Below, piece after piece: positions 8,616 through 19,566 of a stretch of DNA of 64,000 bases. The stretch is from Hydrogenothermus marinus (GTDB lineage: Bacteria; Aquificota; Aquificia; Aquificales; Hydrogenothermaceae). The notes below the pieces were generated by a model, which saw nothing but the letters and a program-made list of their open reading frames with translations, did not search any database and had not been told where the DNA came from. Position numbers and translations under genes: made by a program. The stretch covers positions 248,001 to 312,000 of the forward strand of contig NZ_REFO01000011.1 of the NCBI RefSeq assembly GCF_003688665.1. The letters are read 5' to 3'. Within the stretch, counting starts at the first letter, position 1, and each line of letters starts with the position of its first letter.

Positions 8616-9098
8616 TTAGCTTTTTAAAAAGTTTGGTCTGTAAAATCCTGCTAAAAGAAATTTATCTTTTTTTTCTATTATCTCAGCTACTGTTCCTTTT
8701 TTGAAAGCAACTCTATTTGGACTTATACAGGTAATTTCATTTAAAAATAGGCTTAAGTCAGGTTCATGTCCTACTAATACAATATTACCTTCATAATTTT
8801 TTACTACTTCTAAATAATCTTCAGGCTCTGCATCTGGTGAAAGATTTTCTTCTATATTAACCTCTTTATATAAAACTTCTGCTAAAATCTTTGCTGTTTT
8901 TAAAGCTCTTTCACAAGGACTTGATATTATTTTTATATCTTCAGGTAATATCTGAACAATAAAATTTGTAAACTTTCTAAACTCTTTTTCTCCTTCTTCT
9001 GTTAAAGGTCTCTTGCAATCATCACCTTCCCAATTTTCTCTTTTTTCTGCTTTTGCATGTCTTACTAAAAATATTTTTCTTATATCTTTCTTACCCAT
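8616..9098 (-). CDS. sixA: SixA-like phosphohistidine phosphatase
   Basis: A 160-residue member of the histidine phosphatase (RHG) superfamily. The catalytic motif is R13-H14-A-K-A; the second catalytic histidine is in ILVGHEPDLS-like sequence (IVLVGHEPDL). SixA proteins dephosphorylate phosphohistidine on signalling or PTS proteins. Here it is the last gene of the polyphosphate end of the long minus-strand operon and overlaps ppk by 19 bp. Polyphosphate kinase itself is autophosphorylated on histidine, so a functional link is possible but unproven. Confidence 0.82.
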   Translation of the reverse strand: MGKKDIRKIFLVRHAKAEKRENWEGDDCKRPLTEEGEKEFRKFTNFIVQILPEDIKIISSPCERALKTAKILAEVLYKEVNIEENLSPDAEPEDYLEVVKNYEGNIVLVGHEPDLSLFLNEITCISPNRVAFKKGTVAEIIEKKDKFLLAGFYRPNFLKS

Positions 9099-11113
9099 TT
9101 TTCAAACACCTCCTGAGAGTTAAAATCTCTTTTCTTAGGTCTTATATATTCCCCTGAAGAAGTTAATATCCTTGCTTTAGCAGTATCTTTTAGCTGAATT
9201 TCTAAAATTGATTTCAGCTTTTCTTTAAGCTCTTTTTTTTCTATTGGAACAAGGGTTTCTACTCTTCTGTGGAAATTTCTTGGCATCCAGTCTGCACTAC
9301 TAATGAATATATTTTCTTCTCCACCAGATTTAAAATAAAATATTCTTGCATGCTCTAAATATTTTCCAACTATACTAATTACATTAATATTTTCACTAAT
9401 ATTTTCAATACCTGGTCTTAAACAACATATACCTCTTACTATTAAATCTATTTTAACTCCTGCTTGAGATGCTTTATAAAGGGCTTTAATAATTTCAGGA
9501 TCAACTAAGGAATTCATTTTTGCTAAAATTCTGCCATCTTTACCATATTTAGTTTCTTCTTTGATAAGCTCTAAAATTTTGTCTTTTAGATTTACTGGTG
9601 ATATAAAAAGTTTATTTAGCTTTGGTGGATGGAAATATCCGGTTATTAAATTAAATATTTTGTTAACATCATCTCCTATGTCTTTATCTGAAGTTAAAAA
9701 ATGAATATCAGAATATACTTTTGAAGTTTCTATATTATAATTTCCAGTTCCAAGATGGATATATTTTTTTAATCCTGTTTCTTCTTTCCTTACAATCATT
9801 AATATTTTTGCATGTGTTTTTAATCCAGGTACTCCATATATTACATGAACTCCATCTTCTTCTAATCTTTTTGCCCATACTATATTGCTTTCTTCATCAA
9901 ATCTTGCTTTTATCTCAACTACTGCTGTAACTTCTTTTCCATTTTGAGCGGCTTTACTTAAAGCTTCAACTATAGGTGAGTTTTTACCTACTCTATAAAG
10001 AGTTTGTTTTATTGCAAGAACATTTGGATCTTCTGCTGCTTCTTCTACTAATTCTACAATAGGATCAAATGATTCATAAGGTGTAAAAATTATGTACTCA
10101 TTTTTTTTTAAAATATTAAATATTTTTTCTACATTAAATTGAGGTGGATAGTAAGATACATAAGGAGGAAATTTTAAATCAGGTCTATCTATTTTTCTAT
10201 ATAAAGTCCATAAATCAGAAAGATTTAAAGGTATATTCATTCTATATACATCATAATCTTTTATATTAAGCTCATCTTTTAAAAAGTTTAGTATAAACTC
10301 AGAACCACCCTTTATTTCAAGTCTTACAGGTTTTCCAAATCTTCTTTCTCTTAAACCTTTTTCTATCTCTTCAAGTAAATCATCTGCTTCTAGCTCTTGT
10401 ATTACAATATCTGCATCTCTTGTAACTCTAAATGTTGCTACATTCCTTATTTCTTGATTTGGAAATAGTTTATCAATATGGTTAATTATTAAATCTTCTA
10501 AATATATATAATGTTCTTCTTTACCATTTTCTTTTAATCTTATAAATCTTGGCAAGATTTTTGGAATAGGAACAAGTCCAAATTGTATTTCTTCAGAAAT
10601 CATCTCAACAATAATATTGAAACTTAAAGATGAAAGATGAGGAAATGGATGAGTCTGATCTACTGCTAAAGGTGTTAATATAGGATATACAAACTCTTCA
10701 AAATATTTATCTGCTTTATTCTTTAGATTTTTAGAAAGTTTTTTATAACTATGTATATGAATTTTTTCTTCTTTTAACTTAGATAACAGATGTTTATACT
10801 GCTTTTCTGTTTCTTTTAAAAGTTGATTTGTTCTTTTTGTTATTTTTGAAAGTTGTTCTTTTGGTGTTAAACCATCAAAAGAAGGGGTATTAACATTTGC
10901 AGAAACTAATTTTTTTAATCCTGCTACTCTTATCATAAAAAATTCATCTAAATTCGTGAAAAAGATAGCTATAAATTTTAGCCTTTCAAGAAGAGGATTA
11001 TTCTCATCTTCTGATTCTTCTAAAACTCTTTTATTAAATTCAAGCCAACTAAGTTCTCTATTAATATAAAGCTTAGGATTATCCAGATTTATATCCTTTT
11101 TAGCATTCCCCAT
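9080..11113 (-). CDS. ppk: Polyphosphate kinase 1
   Basis: A 677-residue PPK1, which reversibly polymerises the gamma-phosphate of ATP into polyphosphate. The N-terminal signature YINRELSWLEFNKRV, the middle FFTNLDEFFMIRVAG, the catalytic-histidine region YIHLGTGNYN and the second histidine region KYLEHARIFYF are all present, so both PLD-like catalytic domains look intact. It overlaps ppx upstream by 14 bp and sixA downstream by 19 bp. Being in the same transcript as an ATPase and an exopolyphosphatase suggests joint control of energy and phosphate storage. Confidence 0.97.
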   Translation of the reverse strand: MGNAKKDINLDNPKLYINRELSWLEFNKRVLEESEDENNPLLERLKFIAIFFTNLDEFFMIRVAGLKKLVSANVNTPSFDGLTPKEQLSKITKRTNQLLKETEKQYKHLLSKLKEEKIHIHSYKKLSKNLKNKADKYFEEFVYPILTPLAVDQTHPFPHLSSLSFNIIVEMISEEIQFGLVPIPKILPRFIRLKENGKEEHYIYLEDLIINHIDKLFPNQEIRNVATFRVTRDADIVIQELEADDLLEEIEKGLRERRFGKPVRLEIKGGSEFILNFLKDELNIKDYDVYRMNIPLNLSDLWTLYRKIDRPDLKFPPYVSYYPPQFNVEKIFNILKKNEYIIFTPYESFDPIVELVEEAAEDPNVLAIKQTLYRVGKNSPIVEALSKAAQNGKEVTAVVEIKARFDEESNIVWAKRLEEDGVHVIYGVPGLKTHAKILMIVRKEETGLKKYIHLGTGNYNIETSKVYSDIHFLTSDKDIGDDVNKIFNLITGYFHPPKLNKLFISPVNLKDKILELIKEETKYGKDGRILAKMNSLVDPEIIKALYKASQAGVKIDLIVRGICCLRPGIENISENINVISIVGKYLEHARIFYFKSGGEENIFISSADWMPRNFHRRVETLVPIEKKELKEKLKSILEIQLKDTAKARILTSSGEYIRPKKRDFNSQEVFEKWVRKI

Positions 11114-11990
11114 TTTTTACTACCTTTTCGTAAATTATTCCTTCTCTTATACCATACTTAGAAATTACAAGTTCTTTAGCTTTAAAGATATCCATTAGTT
11201 CTAAAGCAACAATACTTGCAACAGCTACTGTTTTAGCTCTTTCTAAAGAAATTGGATAAATCTCCATAATTTCAGATGCTGTCATATTTTTTATTTTTTC
11301 TACTATCTCTTTAAGTTTTTTCTTTTTTATTCTTTTCTTTCCAGCTATCTTTTTTAAAGCTCTTATACTACCGCCAACCCCTACAATAATATTTGTTTCG
11401 TATAATTTAAAATCATAAGGATTAACAAAAGCTCTAATTTTTCTTCTTATTGCTATCTCATCTTCTATTTTCCCATCTTTCATATAATCTTTAAATATTA
11501 AAGTTCCTAAAGGATAGCTTTTACAATTTTCAGTATCTATTATAGATTTACTCTTTTTTAAAGATTCTATTTCACAAATTTCTAAACTTCCGCCACCTAT
11601 ATCAAATATTAATCCTTGTTTTTCTTTTATATCCAATAATGCACCTATAGCTGAGTAATAAGCTTCTTCTTTCCCTGATAATACTTGAATATCAAAATAT
11701 TTTTTTAATCTTTTTATTATTTCACCTTTATTTTCTGCAACTCTTATTATATATGTTGCAAAAGATATTACACAGTCTGGATTTATCTGTTTCACTTCAT
11801 TATAAAAATCTTTTATCAGATTTTCTAATTTATTTATTCCTTCTTCTGTGATTTTTCCATCTTTTAGATAATTTAATAGCCTAAGATAATAAGAGTTTTT
11901 AAAAATTTGTTTTATTTTTTTTCCTTGTAGTGAATACAAAACAAGTTTAACAGTGTTTGAACCTATATCTATTACTACTATTTTTTTCAT
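11100..11990 (-). CDS. ppx: Exopolyphosphatase / guanosine pentaphosphatase (Ppx/GppA)
   Basis: A 296-residue protein of the ASKHA phosphatase superfamily. The N-terminal DIGSNTVKLVLY is the phosphate-1 loop and LIFDIGGGSLEI is the phosphate-2 loop typical of Ppx/GppA. It is the short form, lacking the C-terminal HD-like domain, as in many Aquificota and Campylobacterota. It would release phosphate from polyphosphate ends or hydrolyse pppGpp; sequence alone does not decide. Its start overlaps the atpQ stop by 4 bp and its end overlaps ppk by 14 bp. Confidence 0.92.
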   Translation of the reverse strand: MKKIVVIDIGSNTVKLVLYSLQGKKIKQIFKNSYYLRLLNYLKDGKITEEGINKLENLIKDFYNEVKQINPDCVISFATYIIRVAENKGEIIKRLKKYFDIQVLSGKEEAYYSAIGALLDIKEKQGLIFDIGGGSLEICEIESLKKSKSIIDTENCKSYPLGTLIFKDYMKDGKIEDEIAIRRKIRAFVNPYDFKLYETNIIVGVGGSIRALKKIAGKKRIKKKKLKEIVEKIKNMTASEIMEIYPISLERAKTVAVASIVALELMDIFKAKELVISKYGIREGIIYEKVVKNGEC

Positions 11991-12262
11991 TTAAAATCCT
12001 TTATATCTTTTTTATAAACAATTTGATATATATTATAGATGCCAATAAAAATTCCTATGAGAATTCCTGTTATTGTCCAAGAAGTTTTACCAATTTTATA
12101 GCTTCCATCAAGCCACCAGCCAATATATGCTCCTAAAACAACAGGAAGTAAAAAGATAATACTTATACTTCCAATATAAGTAAGAGCATACCATATATTT
12201 TTTTCTTTTTTTTGTTCTAATTTATTTATCTTTTCTTTTATATCTTTAAAAAAATCTGACAT
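11987..12262 (-). CDS. atpQ: N-ATPase small membrane subunit AtpQ (AtpZ/AtpI-like)
   Basis: A 91-residue protein with two membrane helices of the AtpZ/AtpI-like family. After a charged N terminus it has a first hydrophobic stretch (YIGSISIIFLLPVVLGAYIG), the family signature GAYIGWWLDG, then a second helix with GILIGIFIGIYNIYQIV. AtpQ of N-ATPase operons belongs to this family and is thought to help Mg2+ supply or c-ring assembly. It follows atpC by one base, the same neighbour as in standard N-ATPase operons, and overlaps ppx by 4 bp. Confidence 0.75.
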   Translation of the reverse strand: MSDFFKDIKEKINKLEQKKEKNIWYALTYIGSISIIFLLPVVLGAYIGWWLDGSYKIGKTSWTITGILIGIFIGIYNIYQIVYKKDIKDFK

Positions 12263-12263
12263 T

Positions 12264-14833
<2,570 letters not shown>

Positions 14834-14837
<4 letters not shown>

Positions 14838-16321
14838 AACTTTTCTACAAAATCTTTAATTTCTTTTTTTAGGTTTTCTGTTAAAACTTTTGAGTATTTA
14901 ATTTCTTTTAGTATTTCTGGTTTTTCTTTTTCTAATCTTTCTAAAACAAAGTCTGCATTATAATTAACCTGATCTTCTGGTAATTTATCAAAATAACCTT
15001 CATTTAATAAAAAAAAGATAATTACTTGTTGTTCAACCTGATAATGTTTTCTTTTTGGTTGTTTTAAAAGCTCTCTTAATCTTTTTCCTCTTCTTATTAT
15101 CTTTTCAGTTTCTCCAAACACTTTTACTCCAAGCTTTGTGAATATCTCAACTTCTAAAAACTGAGCATAATAAAGTCTTAAAGATTCTGCAACATCTTTT
15201 AAAGCTGGTATTTGAGTTTTTCCTCCAATTCTTGAAACTGATTTTCCTACATCTACTGCTGGTCTTTGATTTATATTAAAAAGATTTGCATCAAGATATA
15301 TCTGTCCATCAGTGATAGATATTACATTTGTTGGAATATATGAAGAAATTCTCCCTGCTTGAGTTTCTACTATAGGAAGTGCCGTAATTGAGCCACCATT
15401 TTTTATTTTACAAGCTCTTTCTAAAAGTCTTGAATGTATATAAAAAATATCTCCTGGATAAGCTTCCCTTCCTGGAGGTCTTTTTAGTAAAAGAGATAAA
15501 GCTTGATATGCAAAAGCATGCTTTGTTAAATCATCATAAACTATTAAAACATCTTTGCCTTTATCAAGAAAATATTCTGCTATTGCAGTTGCTGAGTATG
15601 GAGCTAAAAATTTAAGTCCAGGATTTTGATCTGATGTTGCGGCTACAATTACTGTGTAATCAAGAGCTCCATATTTTTTTAAAGTTGAGTAGACATCTAA
15701 AACTGCCTGTTTTCTTTGTCCTATTGCAGTATATACACAGATTACATTTTTATCTTTCTGATTTAGTATAGTATCAACTGCCAAGGTAGTTTTACCTGTA
15801 GAGGTATCACCAAGAATAAGCTCTCTTTGCCCTTTGCCAATAGGAAACATAGAATCTATTACTTTAATACCTGTGTAGAGCTGATCTTTTACAAAATCTC
15901 TATCAAAAATAGCAGGTGCATCTCTTTCTACAGGATAATAAGTTGAAGTTTTTATGGGTGGTTTTTCATCAAGAGGTTTACCAAGAGGATTAACCATTCT
16001 ACCTACTATATCTTCTGACACAGGTACTGATATTATATGGCCTGTTCTGTAAACAATACTATTTACTTCAACATTTTTTTCTTTTTCAAGTATTATAGCT
16101 GTTAAAAAATTTTCTTTTATATCTATAACTATTCCATTTATATTATTTTCAAATTTTACAACTTCATAAAACTGGACATTTGGAAGACCTCTAATTTTAG
16201 CAAGACCTTCTTCTATAGATTCAACAACACCTTCTTCTTCAATTAGTGGCTTTAATTGATAATCTTTTACTGCTTCTTTTATTGCTTCTTTAAATCTATC
16301 TATTCCATTAATAGCTTTCAA
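14834..16321 (-). CDS. atpA: N-ATPase alpha subunit
   Basis: A 495-residue non-catalytic nucleotide-binding subunit. The P-loop at 171-178 reads GDTSTGKT where most alpha subunits have GDRQTGKT. The arginine finger is present in SVSRIGGKTQ (about R366). The extreme N terminus lacks the usual delta-binding start of housekeeping alpha subunits, which agrees with the absence of a separate atpH gene. It overlaps atpF by 14 bp and atpG by 4 bp. Confidence 0.95.
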
Positions 16322-17063
16322 TTTTTTTCCTCATTATATTTTGAAATACAGATAACTGGCCTTCAAGAGATAAATCTATAAGTTTTGAACCAATATGTAT
16401 GCTAACTCCTGCAATTAAATCTTTTTTCTCTTCTTCTTTTATAGATACTTCAATACCAAACTCTTTTTTTATTAAATCTTTCAGCTTGTTTTTTTCTTCT
16501 TCTGTTAAAGGATATGCAGTTTCAATTAAAATAAATTTTTGATGTTTTAATTCTTCTGATATGGATTTTTTATCTTCATCTGGTAAATTTTCAATGGCTT
16601 CAAGGGCTAATTTGAATAAATTCTTATGTAAATTTTCATCAGAAACCTTAACTAATATTTTAGAAACAAACTGAAGAGAGTAGTTTATAATAAACTCCTT
16701 AATCTCATTGATTACTTCCTTTTTCTCTATCTGAAGAGATTCTAAAAATTTTTCTCTTTCTGCATCAAGTTCTGCTTTCATCTGTTTATACAACTTTTCT
16801 TTTTCTTCTTCTACTTGTTTTGTTATCTCTGCTAATTTAGCCTTTTTTATATTTTCTATATCTTGTAATAGTTTTTCATATTCTTGTTTAAGCTTTTCTA
16901 CTTTTGCTTGAGCTTCTTCTGCTTCTCTTATCTTTGTATCAATATACTCTTTTCTTTTTTTCAAAACAGAGATAACAGGTTTATAAAGTAGCTTTTTCAA
17001 AATCCATAGTAGAATAAAAAAGTTTATAATCTCAAAAAGATAAGTTAATAAATCAAACTTCAT
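16308..17063 (-). CDS. atpF: N-ATPase b subunit with delta-like C-terminal domain
   Basis: A 251-residue protein, much longer than an ordinary b subunit (about 160). One N-terminal membrane helix (residues 5-30) leads into the stalk motif YKPVISVLKKRK and a long coiled coil to about 150. The C terminus (about 180-251) contains IETAYPLTEEEKNKL and DLIAGVSIHIGSKLIDLSLEGQL, which matches the C-terminal domain of the delta subunit (AxPLTxEQ and LIGGxxxxxGDxxIDxSL). The protein therefore joins b and delta functions in one chain, a feature of N-ATPases. It starts 8 bp after atpE. Confidence 0.92.
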   Translation of the reverse strand: MKFDLLTYLFEIINFFILLWILKKLLYKPVISVLKKRKEYIDTKIREAEEAQAKVEKLKQEYEKLLQDIENIKKAKLAEITKQVEEEKEKLYKQMKAELDAEREKFLESLQIEKKEVINEIKEFIINYSLQFVSKILVKVSDENLHKNLFKLALEAIENLPDEDKKSISEELKHQKFILIETAYPLTEEEKNKLKDLIKKEFGIEVSIKEEEKKDLIAGVSIHIGSKLIDLSLEGQLSVFQNIMRKKIESY

Positions 17064-17071
17064 TTTTTATC

Positions 17072-17338
17072 CTATTTTGTAAAAAGATGTATAAATGGAT
17101 TTGCAAAAAGTATAATTAAAGCAATTACCAAAGAATAGATAGCAACAGATTCAACAACTGCAGCACCAATAAAGAAAAGTCTTATAATTGTATTTGCTTG
17201 TTCTGGTTGTCTTGCAACAGATTCTATAGCTTTTGTTAGAGCTTCACCTTCTCCTCTTGAAGGCATCATTCCACCAATTGCTATTGTAATACCTGCTGTA
17301 AATATTGATACTGCTGCTATAATTGTAAGTGAATCCAT
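17072..17338 (-). CDS. atpE: N-ATPase c subunit, Na+-type with extra glutamates
   Basis: An 88-residue helical hairpin forming the rotor ring. Aligned by eye to the Ilyobacter tartaricus Na+ ring through the shared SVARQPE loop, it keeps V61, E63, S64 and Y68 at the positions of V63, E65, S66 and Y70, which bind Na+. Where I. tartaricus has Q32, this protein has E30, with another glutamate at E32 (GEGEALTKAIES). A carboxylate on helix 1 in addition to the one on helix 2 is characteristic of N-ATPase c subunits. The Na+ specificity is a prediction from these ligands. Confidence 0.94.
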   Translation of the reverse strand: MDSLTIIAAVSIFTAGITIAIGGMMPSRGEGEALTKAIESVARQPEQANTIIRLFFIGAAVVESVAIYSLVIALIILFANPFIHLFTK

Positions 17339-17354
17339 AATTTTCCCTCCTTAT

Positions 17355-18095
17355 TTATAGTTCATACCAGTCTTCTTTTAAATATGCTAACTTTTTATCT
17401 AACTCTTCAACCTTTAATCCTGCAACTATATAAGCAAGAGTAAGAATACCAAATAAGTATGCCTGAATAATATCTCCAAGTATATTAAAAAGCATCATAG
17501 GAACAGGTACAATTACTGCTGTTAAAAGAACTAAAATAGCAATAATTAAGTCCCATCCAAGCATATTCCCAAAAAGCCTAAATGTTAAAGACAATATTCT
17601 TCCAAATTCACCTACTATATTTAAAGGAAATAATATAAAAACAGGTTCAAAAAATTTTTTAAAATAGCTTAAACCATGAAATTTGACACCATAATAATAT
17701 ATAGAAAATAATGTAATTGTAGAAAGCCCTGCCACTGCCGAAATATCCCCTGTTGGTGTATGAAATGGAGGTACCATTCCAATAATATTTGAAAATGCTA
17801 CAAATATCCATATTGTAGCTATAAAATTAAAAAAAGGTGAGATTGGCATCTGAGCAAAATCTTTAATCTGTTTAGCTATTGCTATTAGTAATGTTTCTAT
17901 AAAAATCTGCTTTGTAGATGGATTTTTTATTTTTAGATTTCTTGTAAATATAAATGCTAAAACTATTATTACAGCCATTGCTATCCATGTTGTTATTACA
18001 ACATCTGTAAGAGCAAGATGGATTTTTATATTCTCAATAGTTATATATCCAAAATCAAAAAGCTCTTTTGTAAAAACTTTTTCAGCTACATTCAT
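17355..18095 (-). CDS. atpB: N-ATPase a subunit (stator channel)
   Basis: A 246-residue multi-spanning subunit that forms the ion half-channels against the c ring. The essential arginine is R173 in LSLTFRLFGNMLG. The C-terminal helix pair has GDIIQAYLFGILTLAYI, the family's Q-x-x-x-F-x-x-LTxxYI pattern, and the early part has NIIGMVPPFHTPTGD. It overlaps atpR by 4 bp and is followed by atpE after 16 bp. Confidence 0.95.
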   Translation of the reverse strand: MNVAEKVFTKELFDFGYITIENIKIHLALTDVVITTWIAMAVIIVLAFIFTRNLKIKNPSTKQIFIETLLIAIAKQIKDFAQMPISPFFNFIATIWIFVAFSNIIGMVPPFHTPTGDISAVAGLSTITLFSIYYYGVKFHGLSYFKKFFEPVFILFPLNIVGEFGRILSLTFRLFGNMLGWDLIIAILVLLTAVIVPVPMMLFNILGDIIQAYLFGILTLAYIVAGLKVEELDKKLAYLKEDWYEL

Positions 18096-18346
18096 AATAA
18101 CTTTAATTTAAGGTAATATCTAGAAAAGGTCAACCTTGATAAATAAAATCCTATTAAAAAAAATATAATTCCAGCTTTAAAATAGTAAGCAACTAAGATA
18201 GCTATAACTGATAAAAATAAAAATCTATAAAAGAACTTTAAGTTCATTTTTTTATTTAAAATAGCATTTTTAATACTTTTATAAAGATGATAAAAATATA
18301 TAATTCCTGAAATATAACCTACAATGAAAGATATAAAAAATTTCAT
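18092..18346 (-). CDS. atpR: N-ATPase subunit AtpR
   Basis: An 84-residue protein with three predicted membrane helices (about 2-22, 43-60 and 62-80). It shows the sparse AtpR pattern: a first helix with GYISGIIYFYHLY, an FxxRF start of helix 2 with arginine R42, and a third helix with FLIGFYLSRLTFSRY. AtpR is found only in N-ATPase operons, directly before atpB as here, and is proposed to contact the extra carboxylate of the c subunit. The short length makes the call partly dependent on context. It overlaps both neighbours by 4 bp. Confidence 0.8.
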   Translation of the reverse strand: MKFFISFIVGYISGIIYFYHLYKSIKNAILNKKMNLKFFYRFLFLSVIAILVAYYFKAGIIFFLIGFYLSRLTFSRYYLKLKLL

Positions 18347-19566
18347 ACCTCTTCTATTTCACCAGCTTTTTCTAAAGCAAGTTTAGAAAACACAGGGCCT
18401 AAGAACTCGTGAATTGCCGTAGCTCCAATTACCATATTAACAAGAATTAAACCAAAATCTTTAAATTCTGGAGTTTGATAAGAAAGCAAAGCAAGACCAA
18501 TTACTATACCACCTTGAGGAAAGAGAGCAAAGGCTAGATATTTTTTTACTTTTTCTGGTGCTTGTGATAAATGAGCTCCAATATAAACGCCAGTAAATTT
18601 ACCAATAAATCTGGATAGAATATAAACTAAAACTAAAGGTAAGAATACAAAAATAAGCTTTATATTTAAAAATGCTGAACCAACTACAAAAAATGCAGTA
18701 AATATTACATCCTCAATATAATTTTCAAGAGGTCCTTTAAATTTTTCATTCTCTTTATCTATATTAACTAAAGTAATTCCTGTTGTCATAGTAGATAAAA
18801 GTTCATCTACATTAACTGCATGTGCTATAGAAAATGTTAAAAATAAAATACCAACAGTTACAGTAACAACCTCTTTTCTTTCTTTTGCAAACTTACCTAA
18901 GTAATGCATTAAAAATCCCATTACAATACCAAGTAAAACAGCTCCACCTATCTGATAAAGGATTTTAAAAAAAATATTTAAAATTTCTAAATTTTGTCCA
19001 GACATTACAGATTTAGCTATTGCAAAACCAAGAACAAAGTTCATTATTCCTGTTGCATCATCAAGAGCTGCAACTCCAAGAACAGTTGTAGTTAGAACAC
19101 CTTTGGCTTTATATTCATGAATAACTTCAAGGGTCGCTGTTGGATCTGTAGGAGATGCTAAAGCTCCAAATAATAAAGATAAAGCAAATAAAACTTTAAT
19201 ATCTAAATGTTGTGTAAAGAAAAAATATAAAAACATAGCAATAGAAACAAATAAATATGCTAATTCTGCCTCTCCTAAAGTTATAAATGAGATACTTTTC
19301 CCAAGAGATTTTATATTTTTCCAAGATAAAGATGCACCTATTAAAAATGTGATAATAGATAAAGAAGCATGGGTAATAATATCAGATTTATCTAAAAACT
19401 GCTTATCAATAATATTGAAAACATAAGGACTCATTAATATTCCAGCAACAATATATCCACTTACCCTTGGAAGTTTAAAGTAATTAGCAATATTTCCAAA
19501 AAGATAACCAACAACTAGTATTAAACCTATCTCAAATAAAGTTTCTTTAAAAAAAGATAAATCCAT
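18343..19566 (-). CDS. Cation/H+ antiporter, CPA2-type with DD motif
   Basis: A 407-residue protein with about twelve membrane helices of the monovalent cation:proton antiporter family. ASPTDPTATLEV (137-148) and LGVAALDDATGI (163-174) are the ion-binding unwound-helix motifs. The D169-D170 pair is the DD motif of electrogenic Na+/H+ antiporters such as NapA. There is no TrkA-N domain, unlike KefB/C. It shares one base with the hisD stop (TAATG) and overlaps atpR by 4 bp, placing it in one transcript with the Na+-type ATPase. Na+ rather than K+ specificity is inferred from the motif and the neighbours. Confidence 0.85.
   Translation of the reverse strand: MDLSFFKETLFEIGLILVVGYLFGNIANYFKLPRVSGYIVAGILMSPYVFNIIDKQFLDKSDIITHASLSIITFLIGASLSWKNIKSLGKSISFITLGEAELAYLFVSIAMFLYFFFTQHLDIKVLFALSLLFGALASPTDPTATLEVIHEYKAKGVLTTTVLGVAALDDATGIMNFVLGFAIAKSVMSGQNLEILNIFFKILYQIGGAVLLGIVMGFLMHYLGKFAKERKEVVTVTVGILFLTFSIAHAVNVDELLSTMTTGITLVNIDKENEKFKGPLENYIEDVIFTAFFVVGSAFLNIKLIFVFLPLVLVYILSRFIGKFTGVYIGAHLSQAPEKVKKYLAFALFPQGGIVIGLALLSYQTPEFKDFGLILVNMVIGATAIHEFLGPVFSKLALEKAGEIEEV

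What the first reader, a model, noticed from the sequence alone, without database searches (positions are those of the whole stretch)
17072..17338. c subunit with Na+ ligands plus two glutamates on helix 1
V61, E63, S64 and Y68 match the Na+-binding residues of the Ilyobacter ring. The Q32 position is E30, and E32 follows two residues later. Two helix-1 glutamates near the binding site, in addition to E63, could change the ion-to-ATP stoichiometry or pair with AtpR arginines.
Basis: partly seen in the sequence, partly recalled or inferred. Interest (0 to 1): 0.6.

Follow-up and report, generated by a model that had tools for sequence, protein, structure and literature searches.

The report
Variant two-carboxylate N-ATPase rotor subunit
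This is the rotor subunit of a second, N-type ATPase; its first extra glutamate is a known feature, while the second is a variant seen so far only in one bacterial family, where it probably forms a salt bridge inside the rotor rather than binding another ion.

Summary
On the minus strand, 17338-17072 encodes an 88-aa c subunit (atpE) in a complete N-ATPase operon; the genome also has a separate F-type c and beta. E63 is the ion-binding glutamate. E30 aligns with Glu32 of Fusobacterium and Glu30 of Burkholderia pseudomallei: the published two-carboxylate motif, whose second glutamate stays protonated and adds no transported ion. It is common (106 of 137 distinct N-type c subunits surveyed). E32 is the unusual residue: that position is Arg or Lys in 123 of 137 and acidic in none, but Glu in all five N-type c subunits found in the window's family. 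By helix geometry E32 faces the ring lumen, in an alternating charge ladder with R28, K36, E39 and R43. AtpR's otherwise invariant membrane arginine (44 of 44) is missing in these five, so pairing with it is unsupported. The operon is also circularly permuted (atpRBEFAGDCQ, not atpDCQRBEFAG) and preceded by a cation/proton antiporter gene. Verdict: new variant of a known kind, modest interest.

The parts
17072..17338 (-). atpE, c subunit, 88 aa: two-carboxylate site E30 + E63; R28/E32/K36/E39/R43 charges on helix 1; V65 in place of Thr67
17249..17251 (-). codon for E30 (Gln32 position of Ilyobacter)
   Evidence: position counted from the ATG at 17338; alignment
17243..17245 (-). codon for E32 (Tyr34 position of Ilyobacter), the unusual residue
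   Evidence: position counted from the ATG at 17338
17355..18095 (-). atpB, a subunit, with the conserved Arg (R173 in RLFGN)
   Evidence: PF00119; Arg columns 166 and 173
18092..18346 (-). atpR, 84 aa, three predicted helices; canonical helix-2 Arg (45) absent, Arg at 41
   Evidence: PF12966 45.7 bits
18343..19566 (-). cation/proton antiporter with TDP and DD motifs (motif names recalled), 4-base overlap with atpR
   Evidence: PF00999 E 1.7e-33
16308..17063 (-). atpF, b subunit with OSCP/delta-like C-terminal part
   Evidence: TIGR03321 best hit; PF00430 and PF00213
14834..16321 (-). atpA, alpha subunit
   Evidence: tree
13998..14837 (-). atpG, gamma subunit
12637..14001 (-). atpD, beta subunit, downstream of atpG (upstream of atpB in canonical N-ATPases)
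   Evidence: tree
12264..12656 (-). atpC, epsilon subunit
11987..12262 (-). atpQ (ATPase_gene1), last N-ATPase gene of the operon here
   Evidence: PF09527

Best explanation
The gene encodes the rotor-ring subunit of a second, N-type ATPase that works beside the ordinary F-type ATP synthase. Each subunit carries one transported ion on E63. E30 sits beside it in the known two-carboxylate arrangement and is expected to stay protonated, so it adds no transported ion. E32 is not part of the site: it lies on the opposite (lumen) face of helix 1 and pairs within the helix with R28 and K36. This gives an alternating ladder (R28, E32, K36, E39, R43) where most canonical N-type rings have a lone Arg/Lys at 32, and it probably stabilises the ring. 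Because the Thr67 position is Val, the coupling ion is more likely H+ than Na+; the adjoining cation/proton antiporter could then convert the pumped H+ into Na+ (or K+) export. Shown here: sequence, alignment, operon, conservation. Inferred: side-chain directions, salt bridges, protonation, ion and physiology.
For: E30 is a published motif: Glu32 in the 2.2 A Fusobacterium ring, with its proton not co-transported (PMC3692424), and Glu30 in the B. pseudomallei N-type ring, measured as H+ specific (PMC5376962). Survey: c-30 is E in 106 of 137 distinct N-type c subunits from outside the window's family; c-32 is R/K in 123 and acidic in 0; the window, G007, G023, G036 and G014 have E30, E32 and R/K28 in 5 of 5. 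In those 137, charges on helix 1 (residues 10-45) occur at 30 and otherwise only at 28, 32, 35, 36, 39 and 43, on or next to the face opposite E30. Ideal-helix geometry puts 28 and 32 at 160 and -160 degrees from E30, with 28-32 and 32-36 spaced as i/i+4. K28 in G014 keeps the positive charge. V65: the Na+/H+ rule of PMC2359735, applied to N-ATPases in PMC12342949 and PMC6688271. A separate F-type c and beta exist in the genome.
Against: No coordinates of a ring were available, so the lumen direction rests on helix geometry and conservation. All five cases are one clade, so E32 and R28 are effectively one evolutionary event. S64 and E30, both Na+ ligands elsewhere, are kept, which leaves Na+ coupling open. 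In the seven canonical operons that hold an antiporter, residue 65 is Thr in 7 of 7 (36 of 62 without; p 0.04, relatedness ignored), which associates antiporters with Na+-type sites, not H+ ones.
Confidence: 0.62

Rival explanations
1. Na+-coupled rotor: E30, the V61 carbonyl, E63, S64 and Y68 bind Na+ as in Fusobacterium, with V65 only loosening the water; the enzyme is an ATP-driven Na+ exporter that works with the antiporter.
For: All listed Na+ features except the Thr67 position are present. E30 with S64 is the Fusobacterium Na+ arrangement. An N-type enzyme of Aphanothece is reported as Na+-coupled (PMC5376962 introduction). Antiporters occur in canonical N operons whose c has the full EST-Y motif, 7 of 7.
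Against: V65 fails the published polar-residue rule (PMC2359735); the B. pseudomallei N-type ring, with Met at that position, was measured as H+ specific (PMC5376962).
Confidence: 0.33
2. E32 acts as a second regulatory or accessory carboxylate near the ion path, or pairs with AtpR.
For: AtpR is present; AtpR residue 41 is Arg in 5 of 5 family members and Ser in 42 of 44 others, so AtpR changed in the same lineage as c-32. AtpR presence tracks E/Q30.
Against: E32 is 160 degrees from E30 on the helix. The AtpR Arg45 (44 of 44 elsewhere) is L/F in all five. Canonical residues at c-32 are basic, so AtpR arginines would have faced Arg/Lys. One lineage only.
Confidence: 0.1
3. E32 is a neutral lineage accident with no structural role.
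For: Single clade; canonical rings also tolerate M, N, L, I, A, W, Q at 32 (14 of 137).
Against: Kept in 5 of 5 together with R/K28, K36, E39 and R43, with 93-99% c identity although alpha is only 78-79% and beta 84-86% identical.
Confidence: 0.2

Closest known systems
N-type ATPase of Burkholderia pseudomallei (c17 ring; PMC5376962)
   Same: Second operon beside an F-type enzyme; two-carboxylate c subunit with Glu30 (same number); hydroxyl residue after the key Glu; no polar hydroxyl residue at the Thr67 position; atpQ and atpR present.
   Different: Window c has E32 and R28, Ser-Val instead of Thr-Met after the key Glu, operon order permuted, antiporter gene in the operon.
Fusobacterium nucleatum F-type Na+ rotor ring (3zk1; PMC3692424)
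   Same: Best structural match; Glu at the 32 position next to the key Glu; Ser66 and Tyr70 equivalents.
   Different: Thr67 is Val here; Tyr at the 34 position is Glu; the 30 position is Arg; the enzyme is N-type with AtpR and no delta gene.
Antiporter-containing canonical N-ATPase operons, e.g. Acaryochloris sp. 'Moss Beach' plasmid pMB02
   Same: Same cyclic gene order, with a cation:proton antiporter gene between atpQ and atpR.
   Different: Acaryochloris starts at atpD (D-C-Q-antiporter-R-B-E-F-A-G) and has c R32 and T65; the window starts at the antiporter (antiporter-R-B-E-F-A-G-D-C-Q).
N-type ATPases of the Candidatus Brocadia lineage
   Same: The alpha tree puts the family's N-type next to Brocadia (100/98); both have Arg/Lys at c-28.
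   Different: Brocadia has Leu30 and no AtpR-sized gene between Q and B, and atpD first; the beta tree instead makes the family's clade sister to all other N-types (93/89) but does not reject the grouping (p 0.43).

Membership tests
N-type ATPase | atpR gene (PF12966) in the operon | tested here: met
   45.7 bits against a cut-off of 26
N-type ATPase | no separate delta gene; b subunit with a long C-terminal extension (criterion in PMC4154653) | tested here: met
   b is 251 aa with a PF00213 match over 80-243; no delta ORF in the operon
N-type ATPase | second copy beside an ordinary ATP synthase | tested here: met
   F-type c at G000:C15 and beta at G000:C10
N-type ATPase | subunits group with N-type, not F-type, proteins | tested here: met
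   Alpha and beta: the branch that separates the F-type rows from all N-type rows plus the family has 100/99 support; long stem branch, so some caution
N-type ATPase | conserved order atpDCQRBEFAG (a description in print, not used here as a strict requirement) | tested here: not met
   Order is R-B-E-F-A-G-D-C-Q; D lies upstream of B in 77 of 77 canonical loci with both called
N-type ATPase | score above NCBIfam cut-offs of the 'alternate F1F0 ATPase' models | tested here: not met
   c 103.1 of 130.85, b 138.2 of 224.7, a 151 of 302.1, alpha 603.9 of 750.5, beta 571.4 of 752, gamma 118.3 of 282.35, epsilon 47.6 of 100.1: a divergent branch, outside what these models were tuned to name
Two-carboxylate c ring | Glu at the 32 position in addition to the key Glu (65) | tested here: met
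   E30 and E63 by gapless alignment
Two-carboxylate c ring | second Glu permanently protonated, not transporting | not testable with these tools
   needs structure, pKa calculation or transport assay
Na+-coupled c ring | polar residue at the Thr67 position (PMC2359735) | tested here: not met
   V65 in 5 of 5 family members
Na+-coupled c ring | Na+-dependent activity and protection from DCCD/NCD-4 | not testable with these tools
   biochemistry needed

The most novel reading that the evidence does not exclude
In this family the N-ATPase rotor and AtpR were rebuilt together: the ring of lone arginines at c-32 became an alternating salt-bridge ladder along the ring lumen, while AtpR lost its invariant helix-2 arginine and gained one a helical turn away. 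This would mean that AtpR reads or plugs the lumen of the N-type ring, and that these genomes hold a transitional N-ATPase whose gene order, circularly permuted and with atpD-atpC after atpG as in F-type operons, predates or reshapes the canonical operon.
Probability: 0.1. Interest if true: 0.6.

Novelty: new variant of a known kind. Interest (0 to 1): 0.32.

Why it matters
N-ATPases are widespread but little studied, and whether they pump H+ or Na+ is disputed. This form has most Na+ ligands but lacks the Thr67-type residue, sits beside an antiporter gene, and replaces a nearly universal Arg/Lys in the rotor by Glu. It is therefore a natural test of what sets ion choice and of what the c-32 charge and AtpR do. 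If the ion turned out to be Na+, the published residue rule would need revision; if H+, the operon would pair an H+ pump with an antiporter.

Tried and rejected
Extra ions per subunit from E30/E32: rejected on the published Fusobacterium transport data and on geometry.

E30 as a novelty: rejected, since Glu is the majority state (106 of 137).

Pairing of E32 with the invariant AtpR arginine: rejected, as that arginine is missing in these genomes.

Placement of the family's N-ATPase: the alpha and beta trees differ (Brocadia sister versus sister to all), and the AU test on beta does not decide (p 0.43).

Correlation of antiporter genes with residue 65: p 0.04 with related loci, too weak to use. 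AtpR versus c-30: only two or three lineages lack E/Q30; one locus (L115) is ambiguous because its gap was measured from atpC; loci whose upstream gene was not called, L071 and L146 among them, were left out of the test.

Rows dropped: the Croceicoccus c (L075), the G036 c (partial) and the genome's own F-type c were left out of alignment A1; partial alpha and beta proteins and many near-duplicate N-type loci were left out of the trees (45 beta rows of 84 found, 44 alpha rows of which 40 came from 86 found). Alignment A2 used 36 of the 80 loci, and A3 used 32 of the 40 atpR references. Of the 63 plasmid records matched eight N-type loci and two F-type loci were fetched. Searches covered 1,038 genomes and matched 102; only the 62 new loci returned were read. 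One notebook entry wrongly says that G023 lacks atpQ; one search shows it.

Literature: no held paper has both 'Persephonella' and 'N-ATPase'. Searches with N-ATPase/antiporter/operon/atpQ and N-ATPase/AtpR/arginine listed 12 and 3 papers; in the passages I opened (PMC5376962, PMC4154653, PMC7784846, PMC12342949, PMC6504805, PMC6688271) I saw no E32-type c subunit and no permuted N-ATPase operon; figures and supplements were not seen. The founding N-ATPase paper (Dibrova 2010) is not held and is cited through others.

Full report
What is there. The minus strand of 17338-17072 encodes an 88-aa c subunit with a GGAGG site before its ATG. It lies in a tight operon read right to left: antiporter (19566-18343), atpR, atpB, atpE, atpF, atpA, atpG, atpD, atpC, atpQ (12262-11987), with overlapping or closely spaced genes. 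AtpR is recognised by PF12966; b carries an OSCP/delta-like tail and there is no delta gene, which are the published marks of N-ATPase loci (PMC4154653, passages). The genome has a separate F-type c (L001 1375-1740, with Leu at the 32 position and Phe at the Thr67 position by the alignment) and a separate F-type beta.

The site. The alignment to the Ilyobacter and Fusobacterium rings is gapless through both the helix-1 motif and the ion site, and the AlphaFold model (mean pLDDT 92.6, helices 3-43 and 45-78) matches 3zk1_A best. E30 is thus the second carboxylate of the published two-carboxylate motif. In Fusobacterium it is protonated and not co-transported (PMC3692424, passages and sections 12 and 15); in the N-type ring of B. 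pseudomallei it has the same number, Glu30, and the ring was measured as H+ specific (PMC5376962). So E30 is not new and is not expected to change the ion-to-ATP ratio.

E32. Among 88 N-type c subunits outside the window's family (80 genome-contig loci and 8 plasmid loci), position 32 is R 67, K 13, M 4, and N, L, A, I once each. With 62 further loci from three phylum-wide searches the set is 150, of which 137 are distinct: R 103, K 20, acidic 0. The window's own family is different: of 61 genomes searched with the N-type c model (the window's and 60 relatives of its genus, family and order), five have a strong N-type match (G000, G007, G014, G023, G036; E 3e-29 to 2e-27, the next best 8e-13), and all five have E32 together with R28 (K28 in G014). 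Across the 137 others, charged residues on helix 1 between residues 10 and 45 occur at 30 and otherwise only at 28, 32, 35, 36, 39 and 43, that is on or next to the face opposite E30. Ideal-helix geometry puts 28 and 32 about 160 degrees from E30, with i/i+4 partners R28-E32-K36 and E39-R43. In a c-ring the face of helix 1 opposite the binding site is the lumen (established knowledge; no coordinates were computed here). The simplest reading is an intrahelical ladder of salt bridges that replaces the lone Arg/Lys of canonical rings and stabilises the ring.

Ion. The published comparison states that predicted Na+ enzymes have Ser, Thr, Gln or Arg at the Thr67 position and predicted H+ enzymes Leu, Ile or Val (PMC2359735, passage); recent genome papers use the same test (PMC12342949, PMC6688271, passages). 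V65 therefore points to H+, but S64 and E30 are retained and the question stays open: I put H+ at about 0.65. Other N-type c subunits share the E30-S64-V65 combination (5 of 88).

AtpR. In 44 other AtpR sequences the helix-2 arginine (window column 45) is invariant, whereas the five family members have L or F there and an Arg at column 41, which is Ser in 42 of 44. The sample is limited to AtpRs that BLAST recognised above 45 bits. Helix 2 is predicted at 36-55. This speaks against pairing E32 with that arginine. Separately, an AtpR-sized gene between Q and B is present in 71 of 73 canonical loci with E/Q30 and in 1 of 6 without, which fits published notes on N-ATPase-like operons that lack atpR together with the second Glu or the ESTxxY motif (PMC12342949, PMC6688271).

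Operon order and phylogeny. In 77 of 77 canonical loci where both were called, atpD precedes atpB. In the window, G007 and G023 the order is antiporter-R-B-E-F-A-G-D-C-Q; in G014 it is B-E-F-A-G-D-C-Q-antiporter-R; the G036 contig ends inside atpF. All are rotations of one circle, D-C-Q-[antiporter]-R-B-E-F-A-G, the form in which Acaryochloris plasmid pMB02 has it. The beta tree puts the family sister to all other N-types (93/89), the alpha tree beside Brocadia (100/98); beta does not reject the latter. The family's N-ATPase is therefore a deep, long-branched lineage whose exact place is unsettled, and whether the rotated order is old or derived cannot be said.

Taxonomy. From recall only, the window's family looks like Hydrogenothermaceae (Aquificota); the G007 contig of 1,930,284 bases fits my memory of the Persephonella marina chromosome. 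If so, these are thermophiles, which would fit a stabilising role of the ladder; this was not tested.

Verdict. The proposed stoichiometry and AtpR consequences are not supported.

Noticed in passing
window 8616-11990, minus strand: The N-ATPase operon runs on with a 4-base overlap into an exopolyphosphatase-like gene (11990-11100), polyphosphate kinase 1 (11113-9080) and a SixA phosphatase gene (9098-8616). In G007 the gene after atpQ is on the other strand, and in G014 the genes after atpQ are the antiporter and atpR.
   Followed up: partly
window 11987-19566; L036 2456-10058; L069 3451-11606: The N-ATPase operon of this family is a circular permutation of the canonical order, in two different rotations, with an antiporter gene between the atpQ and atpR positions, as in Acaryochloris.
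   Followed up: partly
window 18092-18346 (AtpR residues 41 and 45): The helix-2 arginine that is invariant in 44 of 44 other AtpRs is L/F here, with an arginine one turn earlier.
   Followed up: partly
L092, L102, L205, L208, L212-L214, L217, L218, L220, L221: Brocadia-type N-type c subunits have Leu30, Arg/Lys28 and no second carboxylate; in L092 and L102, where the operon was read, there is also no AtpR-sized gene.
   Followed up: partly
G007:C2:36265-38699 and G023:C2:212314-214660: These two relatives have a further pair of adjacent ATPase-like genes (open frames of 577 and 471 aa in G007, 575 and 463 aa in G023), possibly a V/A-type ATPase; no such pair appeared for the window's genome in the same search.
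   Followed up: no
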